Below are positions 27,443 to 36,520 of a DNA stretch of 64,000 nucleotides, piece after piece. Position numbers and translations under genes: made by a program. The stretch comes from Kutzneria viridogrisea. Its GTDB lineage: Bacteria > Actinomycetota > Actinomycetes > Mycobacteriales > Pseudonocardiaceae. Numbering within the stretch: the first letter of the stretch is position 1; each line of letters begins with the position of its first letter. The DNA lies in NCBI GenBank assembly GCA_014138725.1, contig JACJID010000004.1:248001-312000 (forward strand). The letters are read 5' to 3'. The notes below the pieces were generated by a model. The model saw nothing but the letters and a program-made list of their open reading frames with translations, made no database searches and was not told the origin of the DNA.

Positions 27443-28981
27443 TCAGTGCGCCTGGTGTGCGGCGCTCCAGCAGGCGTCCTGGCCGTGGCAGGCGGACATG
27501 GCCTGCAACGCGTTGTGCAGCATCGTCAACGTCGCTGCTGGGAGCTTGCTCGCGGTGTTGTGCAGCTCCGAGGGATCAGTGCGGCGGTCGTAGTACTCCT
27601 TGGCGCCACCGGTGTACTCGACGTAGGTGTAGTCGGCTGTGCGCAACGCCTGGTAGCTCGGCGGGTTGCCGCTGTTGGCCGCCGGGAAGTCCGGGTCCTC
27701 GGGGGTGGTGTCCGGCCCGTGGTGCTCCACCAGTGCGGCCGTGCGCCAGTCCGGTGGGCTCTGCCTCCTGAGCAACGGAACCAGGCTGTTACCGTCCACT
27801 GAGGATGGTGTGTCGGCCTTGCCCAGCTCCGCGAAGGTCGGGCGCAGGTCGATGTTCTCCACGGGAGCCGCCACCGTGCGCCCGGCCGGGATTCCCGGCC
27901 CGGAGACCACCAGCGGCACGCGCACGTCGGTGTCGAAGGCGGTCATCTTGCCGGGGGTGAGCCGGTACTCCCCCATGTGGTAGCCGTTGTCGGAGCTGAA
28001 CACGATCTCGGTGTTCCCGGCGACCCCCGCCTTGGACAGCGTGTCCTCGATCGAGGCGATCATCCGGTCCACCGACTGCACCGCCTGCACCCGCTTGCGG
28101 AAAGCGGTGTCGATCTTCTGCTTCTCCTTGTCGGTCAACGGGGTGCGGTCGGCGAGCCAGGCGGGGGCGTCGCTGGGCAGGGTGTCGTAGGCCGCGCCCT
28201 GCGGTGCCTTGAGCCCGGGGAAGGACGAGGCGTCCTGCGGCGCGGGGGTGTACGGGGCGTGCGGGGCGAAGCTGGCCACCTCGAGGAAGAACGGCGAGTG
28301 CGCCGTGGCCGAGGAGGTGATGAAGTCCGAGGCCTTGCCGCTGAGCACGTCGGTGAGGTAGTCCTTGGGCTGGGAACCGTGGTGCACGACCTTGTGGTTC
28401 TCGTTGAGGTCGTAGTCGAACTCCGGGTACCCGTTGCCCGCCACGTCCCACTCGTCCCAGCCCGGTGGCACGTAGTTGGCCTGGCCATCCACGGTGCCGC
28501 CCGGCTGGTAGCCGTTGAGGTACTTGCCCATCATGCCGGTGCGGTACCCGGCGTGCCGCAGGGAGGTCGCGGTGGTGTCGTTCTCCTCCCCCTTGCCGTT
28601 GAAGGTGCCGAACCCGCCGTCGTCACCGCCGTTGGTGTAGATCCCGGTGTTGTGCGGGAACCGGCCGGTGAAGATCGAGGACCGCGAGGGGCAGCACAGC
28701 GAGTCGGTGACCGTGTAGTTGCTGAAGGAGGTGCCCGCCTTGGCCAGTTCCTGCACGTGCGGCATGTACTGCACGAGATTGGTGGCCAGGTCGTCGGTGA
28801 GCACGAACACGATGTTGGGCTTGGCCTGCTCGGCCGACGGCGCGGCCTGCGCCCCGGGCAGGGCGCACGCGGCGGCCCCCAGGCCCACCGCGAGCACCAG
28901 CGCCGTCACCGCGGCGATCAGGCGGGTACGCCGGGGAGGCGCACCGCCCGCAACCGTCCAAGACCTTCCTCGAATGTCCAT
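27443..28981 (-). CDS. secreted type I sulfatase (formylglycine-dependent)
   Basis: 512 residues. An N-terminal signal/anchor follows an Arg-rich stretch (PPRRTRLIAAVTALVLAV); Cys39 could be lipidated but the lipobox is weak. Metal-binding Asp63-Asp64 occur in IVFVLTDDL. The formylglycine site is SLCCPSRSS: Cys96, Pro98 and Arg100 match CxPxR, and Cys96 would be oxidised by FGE. Late metal ligands are in FSSDNGYHMGEY. The substrate is a sulfate ester of unknown type; relatives act on glycans and sulfolipids, and some act as phosphonate or choline-sulfate hydrolases. The neighbouring carnitine-type operon is on the same strand but 46 bp upstream, with its own stop. Confidence 0.92.
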   Translation of the reverse strand: MDIRGRSWTVAGGAPPRRTRLIAAVTALVLAVGLGAAACALPGAQAAPSAEQAKPNIVFVLTDDLATNLVQYMPHVQELAKAGTSFSNYTVTDSLCCPSRSSIFTGRFPHNTGIYTNGGDDGGFGTFNGKGEENDTTATSLRHAGYRTGMMGKYLNGYQPGGTVDGQANYVPPGWDEWDVAGNGYPEFDYDLNENHKVVHHGSQPKDYLTDVLSGKASDFITSSATAHSPFFLEVASFAPHAPYTPAPQDASSFPGLKAPQGAAYDTLPSDAPAWLADRTPLTDKEKQKIDTAFRKRVQAVQSVDRMIASIEDTLSKAGVAGNTEIVFSSDNGYHMGEYRLTPGKMTAFDTDVRVPLVVSGPGIPAGRTVAAPVENIDLRPTFAELGKADTPSSVDGNSLVPLLRRQSPPDWRTAALVEHHGPDTTPEDPDFPAANSGNPPSYQALRTADYTYVEYTGGAKEYYDRRTDPSELHNTASKLPAATLTMLHNALQAMSACHGQDACWSAAHQAH

Positions 28982-29026: not shown

Positions 29027-30805
29027 TTACCCGGCGAGCAGGTCCTGCAACTGCTTGACGGCACGGGTGAGTTCGTCGGCGAAGCGGTGCATCTCCTCGG
29101 CGACGTGCCGCGGCGTGCTCAGGTAGAGGTTCCAGCGGTCGGGCAGCAGCACGTAGGCGACCCCGATGCACTGCGGGCTGGTCGAACCGAACCCGAAGTA
29201 CTGGATGTTGTTGGACGGCGCGGAACTGGTGCTCAGGTAGTCGTCGCGCATGACCAGCCAGCCCGGCGAGCTGTACAGGGCCGGTGCCTGCTGCACGCCA
29301 CGGCGCTTCTGGATCAGTTGCAGCTCCCACAGGTGCTGCTCCGGCGCGTCGCCCGCCTGGCATTCCTTCGCCCGCGCCACGTGCTTGGCCGCCGCAGCCC
29401 GCAGCGCCTCCCGCCGCGCGTCGGCGGAGCGGTCCGGGTCGTCCATGGCCGCGACGAACGCCAGCACCTCGGGGGTGACCACACGCATCGCCTCGGTGCG
29501 GCCGTTGCGGTACTGCCGGGTCGCGATGGACTCGTAGGTCGCGCCGGTCAGTCCCTTGGCCCGCTTGTGCGCGAGCTGGTAGGCCATCTGCGCGAAGGCG
29601 TCCGGCGACATCCCGAGCTGCTTGGCGCGGTTGGCGCCGAAGTCGAACGACACGGTCTTCGTGGCCGTCGCGTCCGCGTACGCGGCGAAGGACTTGCCCG
29701 CCTCACGGGCGTCCTCGCGCAGCGCGTCGTCCACTGTGAACTCGACCGGCGCGAACGCCGGGACCCCGCTGGCCGCCTCGCGCGCGGACCGCTGCCCGCT
29801 CAGCAGCGCGTCGGTGAACGCGAGGATCGTGGTCCCGTCCAGCTCGCAGTGCTCGACGTTGATCCCCGCGTTGCCGTCCTGGAACACGACGAACGAGACG
29901 GCCTTGTCGAACCACCGGTTCCCGCTGTCGCCGTGCAGCAGTTCGTCGCACGCCTGCTGGGTGTCCGCGGGCGCGAAGTCCTCAAGGCACAGGCAGAACA
30001 ACGCCGTCTCGATGGTGTCGAGCGCATCGGCGTTGCCCGCGGCCAGCAAGGCCGCCCTGCTCGAGGCCCAGTCCGCGCGCGCCTTGGTCGTGAAGTGCCC
30101 GGCCGCTGCCGCGCGGTCCTCGACGACCTGGCCCGACTCCTGGATCGCGCGCAGCCCGGCCGCGATCTGCTCCGGGGTGTGCGGGCGTCCCACCGGGTCC
30201 AGCACCTCCATCCGGAACGGCGTGTCCCGGAAGAACACCACGATGTGCCGCGCGCCCGAGGGACCCGGCCAGTCCTCGCGGTACGGGGTGCGCGCGGTGT
30301 CCAGCACCTGGCCCGGAATCCGCGTCGCGGAGAACAGGAACTTGTGCTGCACCATCGATTGCGGCTGTCCGCGCAGGACCACCGGGGCGAGCAGTTCCTC
30401 GTCCAGCTTGAGCTTGTGGTCGACAGCGGAGGCGACCAGCTCGGCCGCGCGCTCGACCTGTCCGAGCGGGGACTGCTTGAACAGGAAGAAGAAGTTGGCG
30501 TTGAGCGCGATCCGGTCCCTGCGGCCGAGGTAGCGGTACGGCCAGAACGTGTCCAGCCAGCTGTGCACACCCGCGGACCGGTCGTAGGCCTCCAGCGCGG
30601 ACTGGAGTTCATGGGCTGGGCTGTCCGGCGCCAGGAAGTCCGCGACGGCCGCTTCGGTCTCCGCCAGCTGCTCAGGGGTCAGCAGCGGGGCGCACCACTC
30701 CAGGAAGCGGCGGCAGGTGTCCTCGAGCGTGGGCAACGGGACCCGGGGCAGTCCCTCCTCGTTGCCGAAGGTGCGGGTGGACCACTCCGGACTGCTCACG
30801 GTCAT
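29027..30805 (-). CDS. choline/carnitine O-acyltransferase family enzyme
   Basis: 592 residues, full length for the family. Family hallmarks are present: catalytic His319 in GINVEHCELDGT, the TYESIATRQYRNGRTEAMR block (423-441) that contacts CoA and carnitine, and the Ser-Thr-Ser motif 525-527 in DDYLSTSSAPSNN. Enzymes with these motifs move acyl groups between CoA and the hydroxyl of carnitine or choline. They are standard in eukaryotes and uncommon in bacteria. There is no targeting sequence, so it is cytosolic. Its ATG overlaps the stop of the methyltransferase by 4 nt. With an oxygenase and a methyltransferase upstream, I infer it acylates a hydroxylated, probably N-methylated amino acid. 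Confidence 0.93.
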   Translation of the reverse strand: MTVSSPEWSTRTFGNEEGLPRVPLPTLEDTCRRFLEWCAPLLTPEQLAETEAAVADFLAPDSPAHELQSALEAYDRSAGVHSWLDTFWPYRYLGRRDRIALNANFFFLFKQSPLGQVERAAELVASAVDHKLKLDEELLAPVVLRGQPQSMVQHKFLFSATRIPGQVLDTARTPYREDWPGPSGARHIVVFFRDTPFRMEVLDPVGRPHTPEQIAAGLRAIQESGQVVEDRAAAAGHFTTKARADWASSRAALLAAGNADALDTIETALFCLCLEDFAPADTQQACDELLHGDSGNRWFDKAVSFVVFQDGNAGINVEHCELDGTTILAFTDALLSGQRSAREAASGVPAFAPVEFTVDDALREDAREAGKSFAAYADATATKTVSFDFGANRAKQLGMSPDAFAQMAYQLAHKRAKGLTGATYESIATRQYRNGRTEAMRVVTPEVLAFVAAMDDPDRSADARREALRAAAAKHVARAKECQAGDAPEQHLWELQLIQKRRGVQQAPALYSSPGWLVMRDDYLSTSSAPSNNIQYFGFGSTSPQCIGVAYVLLPDRWNLYLSTPRHVAEEMHRFADELTRAVKQLQDLLAG

Positions 30806-31644
30806 CCTCGTTCTCGAAGGGTGCTCAGGGCGGACTCCAGCCCGGTGGCGGCGCCGTGCGGCCAGGACAGGTGGAGCTGGGCGTACAGCCAGCCCTCCGT
30901 CTCCAGCCCCTGCGGATCCACCCCGGCTGTGGACAGCGTGTCCAGGATCTGCGCCTGTTCCTCCGCGGAGGCGAAGCGGCGCTGCTTGAACACGCCGTGG
31001 ATGCTAGCGGTCTGGTATCCCAGTTCGGCCAGGCCCTCCGCCACCGGTTCGTAGGGGAACATCCGCAGCACGAAGTGCGCCATCCACGGCCGTGCGCCGC
31101 GTGCGATGCGGGTCAGCGTCTTCTCGGTGACGTACCCGACGCAGCCGGTGGACACGACGAGGTCGACCTCGTCCAGGAGGTCCTGCTGCTCGGGGTCCGG
31201 TTCGTTGGCTTCGAGGTCGGCTGGGATCGTCTCGTCGAGAAAACCCGCGGCGTGCGCGTACTCCAGCGCCGGTACCGAGGCGTCGAGGCCGACGAACCGC
31301 ACGCCGGTGGCCCCGCCGTTGGACCGCACCAGCTGGCGGTCGCGCGCGAGCAGCTCCTCGTGGTCCAGCGAATCCGCTTCGCCGTAGTGCTCGAACAGTT
31401 CGTCCATCGTCGTGTCGCACCGGTTCAGCACCCCGTTGACCCCGTAGGAGCACCCGACGTCGAGCACGGTCGGTTCGGCGACCTGCTGGTCCTCGCGGTA
31501 GCTCTCGATCAGCGTGCTGAAGTACGGCTTGGCCAGTTGCGGGATCTGGTAGTCGAGCCCGCGCAGGGTGCCGAAGAACGCGCGGGGATCGGGTGCGGTG
31601 TAGATGTCGTCGAAGGAGATCTTGCCGGTCTGGTCCAAGGGCAC
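30802..31644 (-). CDS. class I SAM-dependent methyltransferase
   Basis: 280 residues. Motif I is VLDVGCSYGVNG (about 60-71), followed by VRFVGLDAS (ribose-binding acidic strand) and VDLVVSTGCVGYV as the motif IV strand. A long helical N-terminal stretch (IYTAPDPRAFFGTLRGLDYQ) probably closes over the substrate. It shows neither the EgtD nor the trimethyllysine SET-type pattern. Second gene of a three-gene operon: 15 nt after the oxygenase and overlapping the acyltransferase by 4 nt. A natural guess is methylation of an amine, or of the oxygenase product, to give a betaine; an O-methyltransferase is equally possible from sequence alone. Confidence 0.88.
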   Translation of the reverse strand: MPLDQTGKISFDDIYTAPDPRAFFGTLRGLDYQIPQLAKPYFSTLIESYREDQQVAEPTVLDVGCSYGVNGVLNRCDTTMDELFEHYGEADSLDHEELLARDRQLVRSNGGATGVRFVGLDASVPALEYAHAAGFLDETIPADLEANEPDPEQQDLLDEVDLVVSTGCVGYVTEKTLTRIARGARPWMAHFVLRMFPYEPVAEGLAELGYQTASIHGVFKQRRFASAEEQAQILDTLSTAGVDPQGLETEGWLYAQLHLSWPHGAATGLESALSTLRERG

Positions 31645-31659
31645 GGGCTGGCTCCTGAC

Positions 31660-32517
31660 TCAGTCGAGCAATGCGTCGCCACGGACGGATCCGGCCAGGT
31701 GTGCGGGCAGCACCCGGCCGAACAGCTGTCTCGTGCGCTCCGGGCTGCCCACCACGCCGGGGCGCTCGCTGTAGGCGAAGATCGCCGAATGGCGGGCGAG
31801 CGCACCGTGCACCGCCGTGACCCGGTGCAGCGAGTACCGGCCGAGGAACAGCTGGAGATCGCCGGGGCGCAGGTCGAGCTGGCGCACGAGGTCGCTCTTT
31901 CCGGCCAGCGCCGCCCGGACCGCGTCCAGGTTCTCGTCGGTGGCCGACCGGATGTTCGGGCAGTACTCGAACCGCCCGCCGCCCCCGGCCTCCTGGGTGA
32001 GCATGCTGACGGTGAACTCGTTGGTGTCGAAGTGCCACGGGTGCGCGCGGCCCGGCTCGATCACGTTGAGCGTGAGCCCGGACAGCGGGTCGGCGAGTTC
32101 GTGCAGCGCGGGCTGGCTGAAGCAGTCGGCGACGAACCGCTGGAACACCGGGCTGGTGTAGAGCTGCTGGATGATCGCGGTCGCCGGGATGTGGTCGCGC
32201 GCCACGAAGGCGTTGCCGCGCTCCATGATCGTGCGACCGGGGTGGTCCTCGGGCAGCGGGGTGTCCAGCGCGATGTTGTACGCGTTGACCCGTTCCACCT
32301 TGGCGTAGGCGTGCGGCGCGAAGGCCGCGCACTCGGTGCGCAGCAGGTCCTGGAACTGCGGGCGCATGAAGTCCCTCAGCACGCTGCACCCGAGCTCGCG
32401 CAGTTCGGCTCTGCTGCGGTCGACGATTTCCCGCCACGCCGCGCTGCCCACCTCGGTGAGCGGATATCTGTCGGTGTCGAGGAAATCGAGGGCGGTCACG
32501 GCGTCAGCAGTGCTCAT
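31660..32517 (-). CDS. Fe(II)/2-oxoglutarate oxygenase, BesD/HalD (ArpA)-like, hydroxylase type
   Basis: 285 residues. The iron triad is His162-x-Asp164 (HPWHFDTNEFTVSMLTQ) and His231 (GRYSLHRVTAV), with Arg242 as the likely 2-oxoglutarate ligand. The whole C-terminal half follows the pattern of the BesD/HalD amino-acid halogenase family. Halogenases of that family have Gly in place of the Asp to leave room for chloride; here the Asp is present, so hydroxylation is predicted. Known relatives act on free amino acids such as lysine. First gene of the operon, transcribed away from the rifamycin-resistance genes. ATG 32517 lies after a poor ribosome site (CGAGAGGACGTCG). Confidence 0.9.
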   Translation of the reverse strand: MSTADAVTALDFLDTDRYPLTEVGSAAWREIVDRSRAELRELGCSVLRDFMRPQFQDLLRTECAAFAPHAYAKVERVNAYNIALDTPLPEDHPGRTIMERGNAFVARDHIPATAIIQQLYTSPVFQRFVADCFSQPALHELADPLSGLTLNVIEPGRAHPWHFDTNEFTVSMLTQEAGGGGRFEYCPNIRSATDENLDAVRAALAGKSDLVRQLDLRPGDLQLFLGRYSLHRVTAVHGALARHSAIFAYSERPGVVGSPERTRQLFGRVLPAHLAGSVRGDALLD

Positions 32518-32561
32518 CGACGTCCTCTCGCGAGGTGAAGCAGCAGCGCTTTCCCTGATCG

Positions 32562-32903
32562 TCAGAAAACGTTTAGCACATGATCATCCTGGCAGCCCTG
32601 GAGTTGTGATCGGTCGCACACGGCAACTGTTTTGGAAATCAGCGCGCGGGGAGCTCGCTGGCGGCGCTGTGTGGACGGTGCCCTCAGAATGGGCGATGAG
32701 GAACAGTGGACAGCCCGGTGTCGCGCAGCAGGAAAGGAGATCAGCTCCTGACCGCCCGCCGGGCTGTGCGCGTTGGCCGTGGCGAGCCCGCCGAAATCCA
32801 GAAGCAGCAAGGAATTGTCACCTTCGTACAAGGCGGACCCGTCCCCGCACTCCCCTGAGGCCGTCAAGTCATCGGCCACGCCCAGGTTCGAGCCGTCCGG
32901 CAT
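32562..32903 (-). CDS. doubtful small ORF or gene remnant in divergent region
   Basis: 113 codons. The first 60 residues (MPDGSNLGVADDLTASGECG...) look protein-like, and the frame stays open upstream for another 22 codons (WAASFPIPGTPVALTS) without a start before a TAA. The remainder is Arg/Ser/Cys-rich and unconvincing. It could be the remnant of a gene whose 5' end was lost or frameshifted. No family recognised and no ribosome site. Confidence 0.25.
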   Translation of the reverse strand: MPDGSNLGVADDLTASGECGDGSALYEGDNSLLLLDFGGLATANAHSPAGGQELISFPAARHRAVHCSSSPILRAPSTQRRQRAPRALISKTVAVCDRSQLQGCQDDHVLNVF

Positions 32904-32983
32904 CGAGGTGAGCGCGACTGGTGTGCCCGGGATCGGAAAGGAGGCTGCCCACTCCCCTCCATGTTCAACTTATAGCGCACCGG

Positions 32984-33002
32984 GGGGCTTGCGGCAAGGC
33001 CC
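32984..33002 (+). promoter_or_regulatory. rifamycin-associated element (RAE)
   Basis: GGGGCTTGCGGCAAGGCCC is identical to the 19-bp RAE described upstream of rifamycin-inactivating enzymes (phosphotransferase, monooxygenase, glycosyltransferase) and of helR in actinomycetes. It ends 60 bp before the glycosyltransferase start. TTGCGG inside it (32989-32994) could be a -35 paired with CAGAAT at 33014-33019 (19-nt spacer); alternatively TATAGC at 32971 is the -10. Confidence 0.9.
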
Positions 33003-33062
33003 CGGTGATGCCTCAGAATCCTCGGGCCAAGGCCACAACCTGCGGAAACTGGGGGTAGCGGA

Positions 33063-34298
33063 GTGCGGGTGCTGTTGTCGACGTACGGATCACGGGGGGA
33101 CGTCGAGCCGCTGGTGGGTCTCGCGGTGCGCCTGATGGAACTCGGCGCGCAGGTGCGGGTGTGCGCGCCGCCGGACGAGGACTTCGCGCGGCGGCTGGCC
33201 GGTATCGGGGTGCCGCTGGTGCCGGTGGGCCCCTCGGCGCGCGAGCTGACCCTCGCGGCACCGCCACCATCCTCCCTGTCCCAGCGCGCGGCCAAGTTGA
33301 TCGCCGACCAGTTCGAGGCGGTCACCGCGGCGGCCGAGGGCTGCGACCTGCTGGTGGCGACCGGCATGCTGCCGGCCGTGGCCGGTGCCCTGTCGGTGGC
33401 CGAGAAGCTGGACCTCCGATCGGTGTTCGTGGCCTTCCAGAAGATCGTCCTGCCCTCGCCGCACCACCCGCCGCTGGCCTACCCCGGCCACCCGCTGCCG
33501 CCGGGGATCACCGACAACCGCGTGCTGTGGGATCTGGACGTCCAGGTCACGACCGCGCTGTTCGGCGAGGCGCTCAACACCAACCGGGTGTCCTTCGGCC
33601 TGCCCCCGGTGGCCGGGGTTCGCGACTACGTCCTCGGCGACCGGCCGTGGCTGGCGACGGATCCGGTCCTGGACCCGTGGCAGGAGACGGCGGAACTCGA
33701 CGTGGTGCAGACCGGCGCGTGGCTGCTGCCCGACACTCGCCCGCTCCCGGAGGACCTGGTGGCCTTCCTGGACGCGGGCGCGCCACCGGTGTACGTGGGC
33801 TTCGGCAGCATGCCCATGCACAGCTCGACCGACCCGGCCCGGGTGGCCATCGAGGCGGTCCACGCGCAGGGCCGTCGCGTGCTCGTGTCCCGAGGCTGGG
33901 CCGAGCTGGCCCAGATCGACGGACAGGACGACTGCTTCGCCGTCGGCGAGATGAACCACCAGGCGCTGTTCCGCCGGGTGGCCGCCGTGGTGCACCACGG
34001 CGGCGCGGGCACCACGACCACGGCCGCCCAGGCAGGTGCCGCCCAGGTGGTGGTCCCCCAGGCGGGTGATCAGCCGTACTGGGCGGGTCGGGTGGCCGAG
34101 TTGGGCATCGGCGCGGCGCACGACGGGCCGATCCCGGGCTTCGAGTCCCTGTCGGCCGCGCTCCGGACGGCCCTGACCCCGCAGACCCGCGCGCGAGCGG
34201 CCGCCGTGGCCGGGATGATCCGTACCGACGGGGCCGTGGTCGCCGCGCAACTGCTGCTCGACATGCACAACCGAGAGAAGCCACCAGTGCCCGCGTGA
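33063..34298 (+). CDS. rgt: GT1 glycosyltransferase, probable rifamycin glycosyltransferase
   Basis: 411 residues from GTG 33063. GT-B fold of the MurG/vancomycin-GtfB/macrolide type: N-terminal acceptor domain from VLLSTYGSRGDVEPLVGLA, and a C-terminal nucleotide-sugar domain with VYVGFGSMP, VHHGGAGTTTTAAQAG and VVVPQAGDQPYWAGRV. No membrane segment. Members transfer a hexose from UDP- or dTDP-sugar to small molecules. The perfect RAE upstream and the HelD-type gene downstream make rifamycin the likely acceptor: Rgt enzymes glucosylate the C23 hydroxyl and inactivate the drug. From sequence alone it could also be a GT1 for another natural product. The stop is 53 bp before the helR start. Confidence 0.85.
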   Translation: MRVLLSTYGSRGDVEPLVGLAVRLMELGAQVRVCAPPDEDFARRLAGIGVPLVPVGPSARELTLAAPPPSSLSQRAAKLIADQFEAVTAAAEGCDLLVATGMLPAVAGALSVAEKLDLRSVFVAFQKIVLPSPHHPPLAYPGHPLPPGITDNRVLWDLDVQVTTALFGEALNTNRVSFGLPPVAGVRDYVLGDRPWLATDPVLDPWQETAELDVVQTGAWLLPDTRPLPEDLVAFLDAGAPPVYVGFGSMPMHSSTDPARVAIEAVHAQGRRVLVSRGWAELAQIDGQDDCFAVGEMNHQALFRRVAAVVHHGGAGTTTTAAQAGAAQVVVPQAGDQPYWAGRVAELGIGAAHDGPIPGFESLSAALRTALTPQTRARAAAVAGMIRTDGAVVAAQLLLDMHNREKPPVPA

Positions 34299-34351: not shown

Positions 34352-36520
34352 GTGTCAGCTCAGGGGTACGAAGAGGAATTGCGGTCCGAACGCGGTTACG
34401 TGGCCGGGCTCTACGCGCGGCTGGACGCCGAGCGCGCGCGGGTCAAGCGCGGGTACACCGCGGCGCTGGCGGGAAACGGCGGGACGCTGCTGGAACGTGA
34501 CGACGAGGTGCGCACGCTGGCCCGGGAGGTGCGGCGGCTGGACGTGGCCGACGACGGGCTGTGCTTCGGCCGGTTGGACACCATCTCGGGCGAGCACTCC
34601 TACATCGGCCGGATCGGCCTGTTCGACGAGCAGAACGAGTACGAGCCGGTGCTGCTGGACTGGCGGGCACCGGCCTCGCGCGCGTTCTACGTGGCCACCG
34701 GCGCGAACCCGGAGAACATGCGTCGGCGCCGCCAGTTCCACACCCGCGGGCGCCAGGTGCTCGACTTCACCGACGAGGTGCTCGGCCGTCCCGGCGAGGG
34801 CGAGCGCGGGGACGCGGCCCTGCTCGCGGCGGTCAACGCGCCGCGCGGGGACGGGATGCGCGACATCGTGGCGACGATCCAGGCCGAGCAGGACAGGATC
34901 ATCCGACTGGACCACCCCGGGGTGCTGGTCATCGAGGGCGGACCGGGCACCGGCAAGACCGTGGTGGCCCTGCACCGGGTCGCGTACCTGCTCTACACCC
35001 AGCGGGAGCGGATGGAGCGGCACGGGGTGCTCGTGGTCGGGCCCAACCCCGCGTTCCTGAACCACATCAGCCGCGTCCTGCCCTCGCTGGGCGAGTCCAA
35101 CGTGGTGTTCACGACCACCGGCGACCTCGTGCCCGGCCTGCACGTCACCGCCGAGGACACCCCGGAGGCCGCGCGGCTCAAGGGTTCGCTGAAGATCCTC
35201 GACGTGCTCGCGGCGGCGATCGCCGACCGGCAGCGGCTGCCGGAGGACCCGCTGCCGATCGAGTTGGCGGGCATCCCGCTGCGGATCGACGCCGCGACCG
35301 CGGAGTGGGCCAGGGACGAGGCACGGGCGAGCGGGCAGCCGCACAACGACGCGCGCTCGGTGTTCACGGAGATCATCACCTACGTGCTCACCGAACGGGC
35401 GATAGGCCGGATCGGCAAGGGCTGGCTGACCAGATCGGACCGCGACGCGTGGGAGAAGATGCGAGCGGACCTGCTCAAGGACCTCGCGGAGGACGAGAGG
35501 TTCACCGCGGCGCTCGACGAGCTCTGGCCGGTGCTGACGCCGCAATCCCTGTTGGCGCCGCTGTACACCTCTCGTGAACGGCTGCGCGCGGCAGGCGCCG
35601 ACGAGGCGCTGTGGCGCGCCGAAGGCGAGGCCTGGACGGTGTCGGACGTGCCGCTGCTCGACGAACTGGTCGAACTGCTGGGCCGCGACAAGTCGGTCGA
35701 CCAGGCTGCCGAGCAGGAGCGCAAGGCCGAGGCCGAGTACGCCGCCCGCGTGATGGACAGCCTCGTCAAGCGCGAGGACATGATGGACGACGAGGACCAC
35801 CTGTTCGCCCACGACCTGATCCAGGCCGATGAACTGGCCGACCGCTTCCTGGAACGCGACACCAGGGAACTGGCCGAACGCGCCGCCGCGGACCGGGAGT
35901 GGACCTACCGGCACGTCGTGGTCGACGAGGCCCAGGAACTGTCCGAAATGGACTGGCGGGTGCTGATGCGGCGCTGCCCCGGCCGGTCCTTCACGGTGGT
36001 CGGCGACCTCGCCCAGCGCCGGTCGGCGGCCGGGGCGGCCTCCTGGGACAGCATGCTGGAGCCCTACGTGCCCGGCCGCTGGGCCTACCGGTCGCTGTCG
36101 GTGAACTACCGCACCCCTGCGGAGATCATGACCGTGGCCGCCGCGGTGCTCGCCGAGTTCGCGCCCGAGGTCCAGGCACCGGAGTCGGTCCGCGCCTGCG
36201 GGGTCCAGCCCTGGTCCAGGCGGGTCACCGAGGAGGAACTGCCCGCTGCCATCGAGGAGTTCGTCCGGGCCGAAGCCGGTCGCGAGGGCACCAGCATCGT
36301 GATCGGGCCAGCCGGTGTGCCGGGCACGGTGCCGGCCTCGGAGACCAAGGGCCTGGAGTTCGACGCCGTCCTGGTCGTGGACCCGGAACGGATCCTCGCC
36401 GAGGGTCCGCGCGGCGCGGCCGAACTCTACGTGGCGCTCACCCGCGCCACCCAGCGCCTGGGCGTCCTGCACCAGGGCCCGTTGCCGGAAGTCCTCACCG
36501 GACTCGCCGAGACCGCGTAG
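34352..36520 (+). CDS. helR: HelD-family RNA-polymerase recycling ATPase, probable HelR
   Basis: 722 residues from GTG 34352 (GAGGGGAA before it). An N-terminal coiled-coil arm (about 5-65; ERGYVAGLYARLDAERARVK) would enter the secondary channel of RNA polymerase. UvrD-like ATPase motifs follow: Walker A GGPGTGKT at 196-203, Walker B VVVDEAQELSEMDW, motif III VVGDLAQRRS, motif V ETKGLEFDAVLVVDP and motif VI YVALTRATQRL. HelD proteins release stalled polymerase from DNA. The HelR branch, induced through an RAE, displaces rifamycin from polymerase and gives tolerance. The RAE two genes' distance upstream and co-direction with the glycosyltransferase support HelR over housekeeping HelD. Confidence 0.9.
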   Translation: MSAQGYEEELRSERGYVAGLYARLDAERARVKRGYTAALAGNGGTLLERDDEVRTLAREVRRLDVADDGLCFGRLDTISGEHSYIGRIGLFDEQNEYEPVLLDWRAPASRAFYVATGANPENMRRRRQFHTRGRQVLDFTDEVLGRPGEGERGDAALLAAVNAPRGDGMRDIVATIQAEQDRIIRLDHPGVLVIEGGPGTGKTVVALHRVAYLLYTQRERMERHGVLVVGPNPAFLNHISRVLPSLGESNVVFTTTGDLVPGLHVTAEDTPEAARLKGSLKILDVLAAAIADRQRLPEDPLPIELAGIPLRIDAATAEWARDEARASGQPHNDARSVFTEIITYVLTERAIGRIGKGWLTRSDRDAWEKMRADLLKDLAEDERFTAALDELWPVLTPQSLLAPLYTSRERLRAAGADEALWRAEGEAWTVSDVPLLDELVELLGRDKSVDQAAEQERKAEAEYAARVMDSLVKREDMMDDEDHLFAHDLIQADELADRFLERDTRELAERAAADREWTYRHVVVDEAQELSEMDWRVLMRRCPGRSFTVVGDLAQRRSAAGAASWDSMLEPYVPGRWAYRSLSVNYRTPAEIMTVAAAVLAEFAPEVQAPESVRACGVQPWSRRVTEEELPAAIEEFVRAEAGREGTSIVIGPAGVPGTVPASETKGLEFDAVLVVDPERILAEGPRGAAELYVALTRATQRLGVLHQGPLPEVLTGLAETA

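What the first reader, a model, noticed from the sequence alone, without database searches (positions are those of the whole stretch)
29027..32517. Three-gene operon: amino-acid-type 2OG oxygenase, methyltransferase and carnitine-family acyltransferase
The genes are 15 nt apart and 4 nt overlapping, so they act together. The oxygenase belongs to a family acting on free amino acids and keeps the iron Asp (hydroxylase). The acyltransferase has the full choline/carnitine motif set, rare in bacteria. Hydroxylation, N-methylation, then O-acylation by acyl-CoA would give an acylated hydroxy-betaine, an acylcarnitine-like product. I know of no described bacterial pathway with this exact trio. The order of steps and the substrate are inference.
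Basis: partly seen in the sequence, partly recalled or inferred. Interest (0 to 1): 0.85.

Follow-up and report, generated by a model that had tools for sequence, protein, structure and literature searches.

The report
Conserved hydroxylase, methyltransferase, carnitine-type acyltransferase unit
Many actinobacteria carry a conserved set of two or three adjacent genes that probably adds a hydroxyl group, often methyl groups, and then a short acyl group to one small acid, giving an ester that resembles acylcarnitine but is probably not acylcarnitine; the substrate is still unknown.

Summary
The operon is real and is a conserved unit. In order: a HalD/BesD-family Fe(II)/2OG oxygenase (OX), a class I methyltransferase (MT) and a carnitine-type acyltransferase (AT). 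In two samples of 150 genomes OX and AT occur together: in 48 of 50 AT genomes of the window's family and in 16 of 16 of a Streptomyces-like genus. They are neighbours in all 64. I found no other gene that follows them across genera. MT is a frequent but optional partner: it lies between them in 45 of 64, is fused to AT in 4 of 80 other loci, and an MT of a second subfamily lies on the far side of AT in 3 of 64.

AT keeps its catalytic and most CoA residues but has Gln where carnitine acyltransferases have the carnitine-carboxylate Arg (92 of 92; a 30% outgroup has Arg), so carnitine is probably not the acceptor. OX keeps the iron Asp and two BesD carboxylate contacts, but two of BesD's lysine-ammonium contacts are not kept.

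Best reading: a small carboxylate is hydroxylated, methylated in most species, then O-acylated with a short chain: a carnitine-like ester. Substrate and role are unknown. My ten literature searches found no description. No structure could be computed.

The parts
31660..32517 (-). OX: HalD/BesD-family Fe(II)/2-oxoglutarate oxygenase, 285 aa; iron ligands H162, D164, H231; R242 as presumed 2OG Arg; predicted hydroxylase
   Evidence: Pfam HalD 39.5 bits; profile search finds HalB 7u6i, BesD 6nie, lysine hydroxylase 7jsd, HalD 7u6h; H162, D164, H231 and R242 in 81 of 81 aligned members plus 15 of 15 further relatives; motif roles read from the alignment, 2OG Arg recalled
30802..31644 (-). MT: class I SAM-dependent methyltransferase of an unnamed family, 280 aa
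   Evidence: Weak generic methyltransferase matches below cutoff (32 of 37 relatives match Methyltransf_25 at E<=0.1); conserved glycine motif DxGCSYGxN; trio MTs form one clade, 100/100
29027..30805 (-). AT: choline/carnitine-type O-acyltransferase, 592 aa; catalytic H319; Q490 in place of the carnitine Arg; F537 at the position of CrAT M564
   Evidence: Pfam PF00755 527.9 bits; alignment with human and mouse CrAT and CPT2; residue counts
32605..32620 (-). Possible operator TGTGCGACCGATCACA (inverted repeat TGTG-N8-CACA), upstream of OX
   Evidence: TGTG-N6..8-CACA in 38 of 80 upstream regions against 0.68 on average (maximum 3) in 50 Markov shuffles; found in 25 of 28 Amycolatopsis and 13 of 16 Streptomyces, 0 of 36 others; the sequences are related, so they are not independent
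32574..32580 (-). Conserved TGTGCTA, possible extended -10 element
   Evidence: In 56 of 80 upstream regions against 0.24 on average (maximum 2) in 50 Markov shuffles; promoter role inferred

Best explanation
OX and AT form a two-step core. OX hydroxylates a C-H bond of a small free carboxylate, and AT transfers a short acyl group from acyl-CoA to the new hydroxyl, giving an O-acyl ester. In most species MT methylates the same compound before or between these steps, which would give an onium (betaine-like) ester resembling acetylcarnitine but not identical to it. Shown here: the families, the catalytic residues, the obligate adjacency of OX and AT, the optional but repeated coupling of MT (between, fused, or a second subfamily on the far side), and the clade-specific Gln in the AT acceptor pocket. 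Inferred: that OX hydroxylates rather than demethylates, that its hydroxyl is what AT acylates, that MT acts on this compound, the short chain length, and the order of steps. Staged odds: OX and AT act in one pathway 0.95; AT acylates the hydroxyl made by OX 0.75; MT methylates that compound where present 0.75; the final product is an onium ester 0.5.
For: OX-AT co-occurrence 48 of 50 and 16 of 16, adjacent in 64 of 64. In 80 loci of named species OX is beside AT in 80 and MT between in 72. MT-AT single frames in 4 of 80 loci (L037, L047, L061, L062), 899-938 aa. An MT of a different subfamily on the far side of AT in G287, G315 and G346; the split between MT subfamilies has 100/100 support, with G287 and G315 in the tree and G346 in the earlier tree. 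Beyond the trio no ORF family was shared by more than 3 of 8 genera, and those few were at scattered positions. AT catalytic H319, D323, G324, S525, S527 in 92 of 92; CoA-site K395, D402, E425 in 81 of 81, equivalents of CrAT K423, D430, E453 named in passages of PMC11852590. OX D164 in 81 of 81.
Against: No activity, metabolite or structure was available; structure prediction never ran (26 busy answers). MT is absent from 11 of 48 pair genomes in the family sample and has no match beside the pair in 4 of 16 in the genus sample, so methylation is not essential. AT occurs without OX in G264 and G298, so AT can do something without OX, or use an imported acceptor. More distant OX relatives are paired with a formaldehyde-activating enzyme (5 of 22 loci read), which suggests demethylation in that subfamily. 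One of two CoA-phosphate lysines (CrAT K419) is not kept (A391, variable).
Confidence: 0.6

Rival explanations
1. Carnitine biosynthesis or use: MT trimethylates GABA or lysine, OX makes carnitine (as eukaryotic BBOX does), and AT is an ordinary carnitine acyltransferase.
For: Carnitine is a 3-hydroxy onium acid and AT is in the carnitine acyltransferase family. Six OX relatives sit beside 3-hydroxyisobutyrate-dehydrogenase-family genes, which fits hydroxylation beside a carboxylate. Tyr and Thr of the carnitine-carboxylate site (CrAT Y452, T465, numbers recalled) are kept in 92 of 92.
Against: The carnitine Arg is Gln in 92 of 92, whereas the outgroup AT L119 keeps Arg. Human and mouse CrAT and CPT2 also have Arg in the printed alignments. 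OX is a HalD relative and not a BBOX-type protein. [quoted passage not shown]
Confidence: 0.1
2. Carboxyl methylation: OX hydroxylates an amino or other acid, MT makes its methyl ester, and AT acylates the hydroxyl. Loss of the carboxylate Arg in AT would then reflect an esterified, neutral acceptor.
For: OX keeps two BesD carboxylate contacts (R100 in 87 of 88, H159 in 88 of 88) while AT lacks the carnitine Arg; MT is fused to AT in 4 of 80 loci.
Against: AT has Gln also in the aligned loci that lack MT; MT resembles no known carboxyl methyltransferase family at cutoff.
Confidence: 0.15
3. Oxidative demethylation: OX removes a methyl group from an onium compound as formaldehyde, MT puts methyls on, and AT acylates a hydroxyl that was already present.
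For: Five of 22 neighbourhoods of more distant OX relatives have OX directly followed by a formaldehyde-activating enzyme gene (L116, L158, L159, L162, L163).
Against: That subfamily is a separate clade, far from the trio OX, and differs at R100 and H159 and, in those rows, at N166. The nearer relatives are paired with beta-hydroxyacid dehydrogenase or DddP-like genes instead. No Fae gene was seen among the trio's shared neighbours.
Confidence: 0.1
4. Unrelated neighbours: the genes are adjacent for regulatory reasons only.
For: MT is optional and moved elsewhere in some genomes.
Against: OX and AT are adjacent in 64 of 64 pair genomes although the wider context is not shared across genera; MT-AT fusions and a second MT recruitment.
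Confidence: 0.05

Closest known systems
BesD, HalB and lysine hydroxylase of the HalD family (PDB 6nie, 7u6i, 7jsd)
   Same: Profile match E 1.8e-24 (HalB) and 2.3e-21 (BesD). Two carboxylate contacts of BesD (R77 and H137, chain numbering; PMC13244439 passage) align with OX R100 and H159.
   Different: The iron Asp is present where the halogenases have Gly. The ammonium contacts E123 and D143 align with L145 and T165. D239 and W241 lie beyond the aligned stretch and were not compared. A single-sequence search of OX found no PDB relative.
Carnitine acetyltransferase (CrAT) and carnitine palmitoyltransferase 2
   Same: Same fold family; best solved relatives; catalytic His, HxxxDG, TYES, GRTE and STS motifs and three CoA-site residues kept.
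   Different: Gln for the carnitine Arg; Phe-Gly-Phe where CrAT has Met-Phe-Phe and CPT2 Gly-Gly-Phe; gene is locked to a 2OG oxygenase.
Choline acetyltransferase
   Same: Same family and, as recalled, also without the carnitine Arg (Asn there).
   Different: Keeps the carnitine-type Thr (T437) in 92 of 92, where ChAT has Val as recalled; weaker match (E 4e-53 against 8e-68 for CPT2).
Eukaryotic carnitine pathway ending in gamma-butyrobetaine dioxygenase plus carnitine acyltransferase
   Same: Same logic: 2OG hydroxylation of a methylated onium acid, then O-acylation by acyl-CoA.
   Different: The oxygenase is from another family, the methyltransferase is optional, and the acyltransferase lacks the carnitine Arg.

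Membership tests
HalD/BesD-type Fe/2OG family (Pfam PF23169) | Profile score above the curated cutoff | tested here: met
   39.5 bits, cutoff 26
HalD/BesD-type Fe/2OG family (Pfam PF23169) | Halogenase signature: Gly in place of the iron Asp | tested here: not met
   Asp164 in 81 of 81 plus 15 of 15 relatives, aligned with Gly of BesD and HalB: hydroxylase branch, not halogenase
BesD-like lysine-specific enzyme | Acidic residues that bind the substrate ammonium (E123, D143 and D239 of BesD) | tested here: not met
   E123 aligns with L145 (80 of 81 Leu, 1 Tyr), D143 with T165 (79 of 81 Thr); D239 could not be compared
BesD-like lysine-specific enzyme | Arg and His that bind the substrate carboxylate (R77, H137 of BesD) | tested here: met
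   R100 in 87 of 88 trio or pair OX (1 Lys), H159 in 88 of 88; H159 in 0 of 21 other relatives
Choline/carnitine acyltransferase superfamily (PF00755) | Whole-length profile match and catalytic His in HxxxDG | tested here: met
   527.9 bits; H319, D323, G324 in 92 of 92
Carnitine-specific acyltransferases (CrAT, COT, CPT) | Arg that binds the carnitine carboxylate (CrAT R518; number and role recalled) | tested here: not met
   Q490 in 92 of 92; outgroup L119 has Arg
Carnitine-specific acyltransferases (CrAT, COT, CPT) | Activity with L-carnitine | not testable with these tools
   No assay
Known methyltransferase family | Score above a Pfam or NCBIfam cutoff | tested here: not met
   Best 19.8 bits against cutoff 30; no NCBIfam match at E<=0.1; no solved relative with a convincing score
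Known methyltransferase family | Rossmann methyltransferase fold by structure | not tested
   Structure prediction never started

The most novel reading that the evidence does not exclude
These actinobacteria make their own carnitine-like acyl carrier. OX (with MT) builds a hydroxylated onium acid that is not carnitine, and AT loads and unloads it with short acyl groups from CoA, buffering or exporting acyl groups as acetylcarnitine does in mitochondria. This would be a prokaryotic counterpart of the carnitine system with a different carrier molecule.
Probability: 0.15. Interest if true: 0.9.

Novelty: new variant of a known kind. Interest (0 to 1): 0.7.

Why it matters
A carnitine-type acyltransferase with an altered acceptor pocket, tied to a BesD-family hydroxylase in dozens of sampled genomes, points to a small ester that appears to be undescribed, made by Amycolatopsis, Actinomadura, Streptomyces, Saccharopolyspora, Frankia and others. 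It would give the HalD family a hydroxylase branch with a conserved metabolic partner, and it would be a rare bacterial case of carnitine-like chemistry. The unit is small, its members are culturable, and deletion plus LC-MS would identify the product.

Tried and rejected
Riboswitch upstream as a clue to the substrate: Rfam on window 32400-33200 gave only one chance match below its gathering score. Other conserved neighbours: only three ORF clusters reached 3 genera, at 29-53% identity and scattered positions; the search covered ORFs of 90 aa or more in up to about 10 kb on each side of 80 loci. Plasmid spread: no match to AT in PLSDB. Named methyltransferase family: none. Ectoine link: in G274 and G306 (and by similarity G363, same genus) the pair lies about 3 kb from ectB/ectD, but this is one genus, so I did not use it. 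Amino-acid permease next to AT in the two AT-only genomes G264 and G298: noted, same genus. DMSP as a substrate: suggested by DddP-like neighbours of OX relatives, but those scores are below the curated cutoff, so it is only a lead. A search for more LysR-OX-M24 sets in the class of G086 found none besides G086 (1 of 66); the class of G069 gave 13 of 296 genomes with OX relatives. Literature: ten searches found no paper on this gene set; the library holds only open-licence papers.

Not in the counts: one search found 230 relatives but returned only the best 80, so the 80-locus figures are for the closest relatives of AT. The 17th AT hit (G439, 31%) was left out of the 16 as an outgroup type. 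G366, the one OX genome without AT, is a 38% relative with a stop inside the match. In one search one row (L132) was read in the wrong frame; the tree was redone without that error and without G346 and some other rows. In one search the row G817d was dropped because my coordinates gave stops.
Full report
WHAT IS THERE. The window belongs to a 10.2 Mb genome (G000:C4:248001-312000) whose closest AT relatives are in Amycolatopsis. On the minus strand, in order of transcription, lie OX (31660-32517), MT (30802-31644) and AT (29027-30805), 15 nt apart and then overlapping by ATGA. OX belongs to Pfam HalD, AT to choline/carnitine acyltransferases, and MT only resembles generic methyltransferases below cutoff. 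NCBIfam has no match for any of them. A sulfatase gene follows AT on the same strand after 45 nt (27443-28981); it is not among the neighbours shared across genera.

THE UNIT IS CONSERVED. A genome-contig scan with AT found 230 relatives and returned the best 80. OX is beside AT in all 80, and MT lies between in 72. Between genera the proteins are on average 68% (AT), 60% (MT) and 68% (OX) identical over 68 loci. Around the unit, gene order is shared within a genus but not across genera: no ORF family was found in more than 3 of 8 genera. To avoid the bias of searching with AT, I searched 150 genomes of the window's family with each protein. AT is in 50, OX in 49 and both in 48, adjacent in 48 of 48. 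In 150 genomes of a Streptomyces-like genus, trio-type AT is in 16 and OX in the same 16, adjacent in 16 of 16. Hypergeometric p values are 1e-35 and 7e-22 but ignore shared ancestry. Exceptions are AT without OX in G264 and G298, and a 38% OX relative without AT in G366. In the window's own genus only 1 of 7 sampled genomes has AT, so the unit is patchy and is gained or lost as a block.

MT IS AN OPTIONAL BUT REPEATED PARTNER. Of the 64 OX-AT genomes, 45 have MT between the two, 3 have it on the far side of AT, 1 has it on another contig, and 15 have no MT match linked to the pair (11 of 48 and 4 of 16). Of the 8 of 80 named loci without MT, two genomes keep an MT elsewhere at 67-69% identity, four have only 36-45% relatives, and two have none at E<=1. 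In one of them (G218) the moved MT lies beside a short OX-like remnant (L097). In four loci (L037, L047, L061, L062) MT and AT are one open frame of 899-938 aa. A tree separates the trio MTs from a second subfamily with 100/100 support. The far-side MTs of G287 and G315 belong to the second subfamily, as does G346 in the earlier tree. Fusion and a second recruitment are the best evidence that methylation belongs to the same pathway.

ACYLTRANSFERASE. Against human and mouse CrAT and CPT2 the catalytic His and HxxxDG, TYES, GRTE and STS motifs are kept. H319, D323, G324, Y424, T437, S525, S527 and F539 are in 92 of 92 trio or pair members. CoA-site K395, D402 and E425 are in 81 of 81, while the second CoA lysine is not kept (A391, variable). 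The CrAT residues concerned are named in passages of PMC11852590. The residue aligned with the Arg of FDRHL is Gln490 in 92 of 92; the 30% outgroup L119 has Arg. That this Arg (CrAT R518) holds the carnitine carboxylate is recalled, not from a call. F537 aligns with CrAT M564, Gly in CPT2; that this position limits chain length is also recalled. I infer a short acyl donor and an acceptor that is not carnitine but may still carry an onium group (F539, CrAT F566, kept).

OXYGENASE. The profile finds HalB, BesD, lysine halogenases, lysine hydroxylase and HalD. The iron Asp is present where the halogenases have Gly. A passage of PMC13244439 lists BesD contacts: carboxylate to R77, H137 and W241; ammonium to D239, D143 and E123. 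By my count on the printed alignment R77 and H137 align with R100 and H159, kept in 87 of 88 and 88 of 88. E123 and D143 align with L145 and T165; the other two lie beyond the alignment. H159 is found in none of 21 OX relatives outside the unit. So OX probably binds a carboxylate but does not recognise an ammonium group as BesD does, which would suit a betaine but does not prove one.

RELATIVES OF OX. I read 22 neighbourhoods of OX relatives without AT. Three have an M24-family gene beside OX whose best NCBIfam match, where tested, is the DMSP lyase DddP, below its cutoff (L112, L113; L150 by similarity), and one has such a gene 3 kb away (L152). Six have a 3-hydroxyisobutyrate-dehydrogenase-family gene beside OX (four tested by Pfam). 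Five have a formaldehyde-activating enzyme gene beside OX. Seven have none of these. The trio OX clade (93/96) joins the DddP-linked clade (98/94), and the Fae-linked group is remote. These partners suggest small free acids, some of them methylated, as substrates of the superfamily. The Fae pairs are evidence for demethylation in that branch and count against assuming hydroxylation throughout.

REGULATION. Upstream of OX, TGTG-N6..8-CACA occurs in 38 of 80 and TGTGCTA in 56 of 80 upstream regions, against shuffle means of 0.68 and 0.24. The repeat resembles a CRP-type site, by recall. Related sequences share it by descent, so this is a lead.

MECHANISM AND LIMITS. Most likely: OX hydroxylates a small carboxylate, MT methylates it in most species, AT adds a short acyl group to the new hydroxyl. 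Family, residues, adjacency, fusion and co-occurrence are shown; substrate, order and product are inferred. No structure was obtained: all 26 submissions were answered 'busy'. Ten literature searches (listed in Tried and rejected) found no description of this set; [quoted passage not shown]

VERDICT. It is a new variant of known chemistry: known enzyme families in a combination I could not find described, with an altered acceptor site.

Noticed in passing
L116, L158, L159, L162, L163: HalD-family oxygenase genes directly followed by a formaldehyde-activating enzyme (Fae) gene in five genomes, suggesting a 2OG demethylase whose formaldehyde is captured on the spot.
   Followed up: partly
L112, L113, L150 (and L152, 3 kb apart): HalD-family oxygenase next to an M24-family gene; in L112, L113 and L152 its best NCBIfam match is DMSP lyase DddP, below cutoff (240-464 bits, cutoff 600). 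A divergent LysR gene lies upstream in L112, L113 and L150.
   Followed up: partly
L151, L153-L157: HalD-family oxygenase next to a 3-hydroxyisobutyrate-dehydrogenase-family gene in six loci of five genomes; four tested by Pfam.
   Followed up: partly
window 32574-32620: Conserved inverted repeat TGTG-N6..8-CACA and TGTGCTA upstream of the oxygenase, shared by many Amycolatopsis loci, the repeat also by Streptomyces; resembles a CRP-type site by recall.
   Followed up: partly
window 27443-28981: Sulfatase gene 45 nt downstream of the acyltransferase on the same strand; not among neighbours shared across genera.
   Followed up: no
L120, L121 (G264, G298): Trio-type acyltransferase without the oxygenase, directly behind an amino-acid permease gene: perhaps an imported acceptor.
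   Followed up: no
L122, L123 (G274, G306): The oxygenase-acyltransferase pair lies about 3 kb from ectoine genes (EctB in L122, EctD in L123 above NCBIfam cutoffs); G363 of the same genus looks alike by similarity.
   Followed up: no
L097 1318-1419 (G218): Moved methyltransferase with a 34-residue stretch resembling the end of the oxygenase just upstream, probably a remnant of the original unit.
   Followed up: no
window 34355-36517: UvrD-type helicase-like gene; resembles HelD/HelR RNA polymerase factors by recall only.
   Followed up: no
G000:C1:990815-991315 (L095): A weak second HalD-like match (28%, E 1.4e-7) elsewhere in the window's own genome.
   Followed up: no
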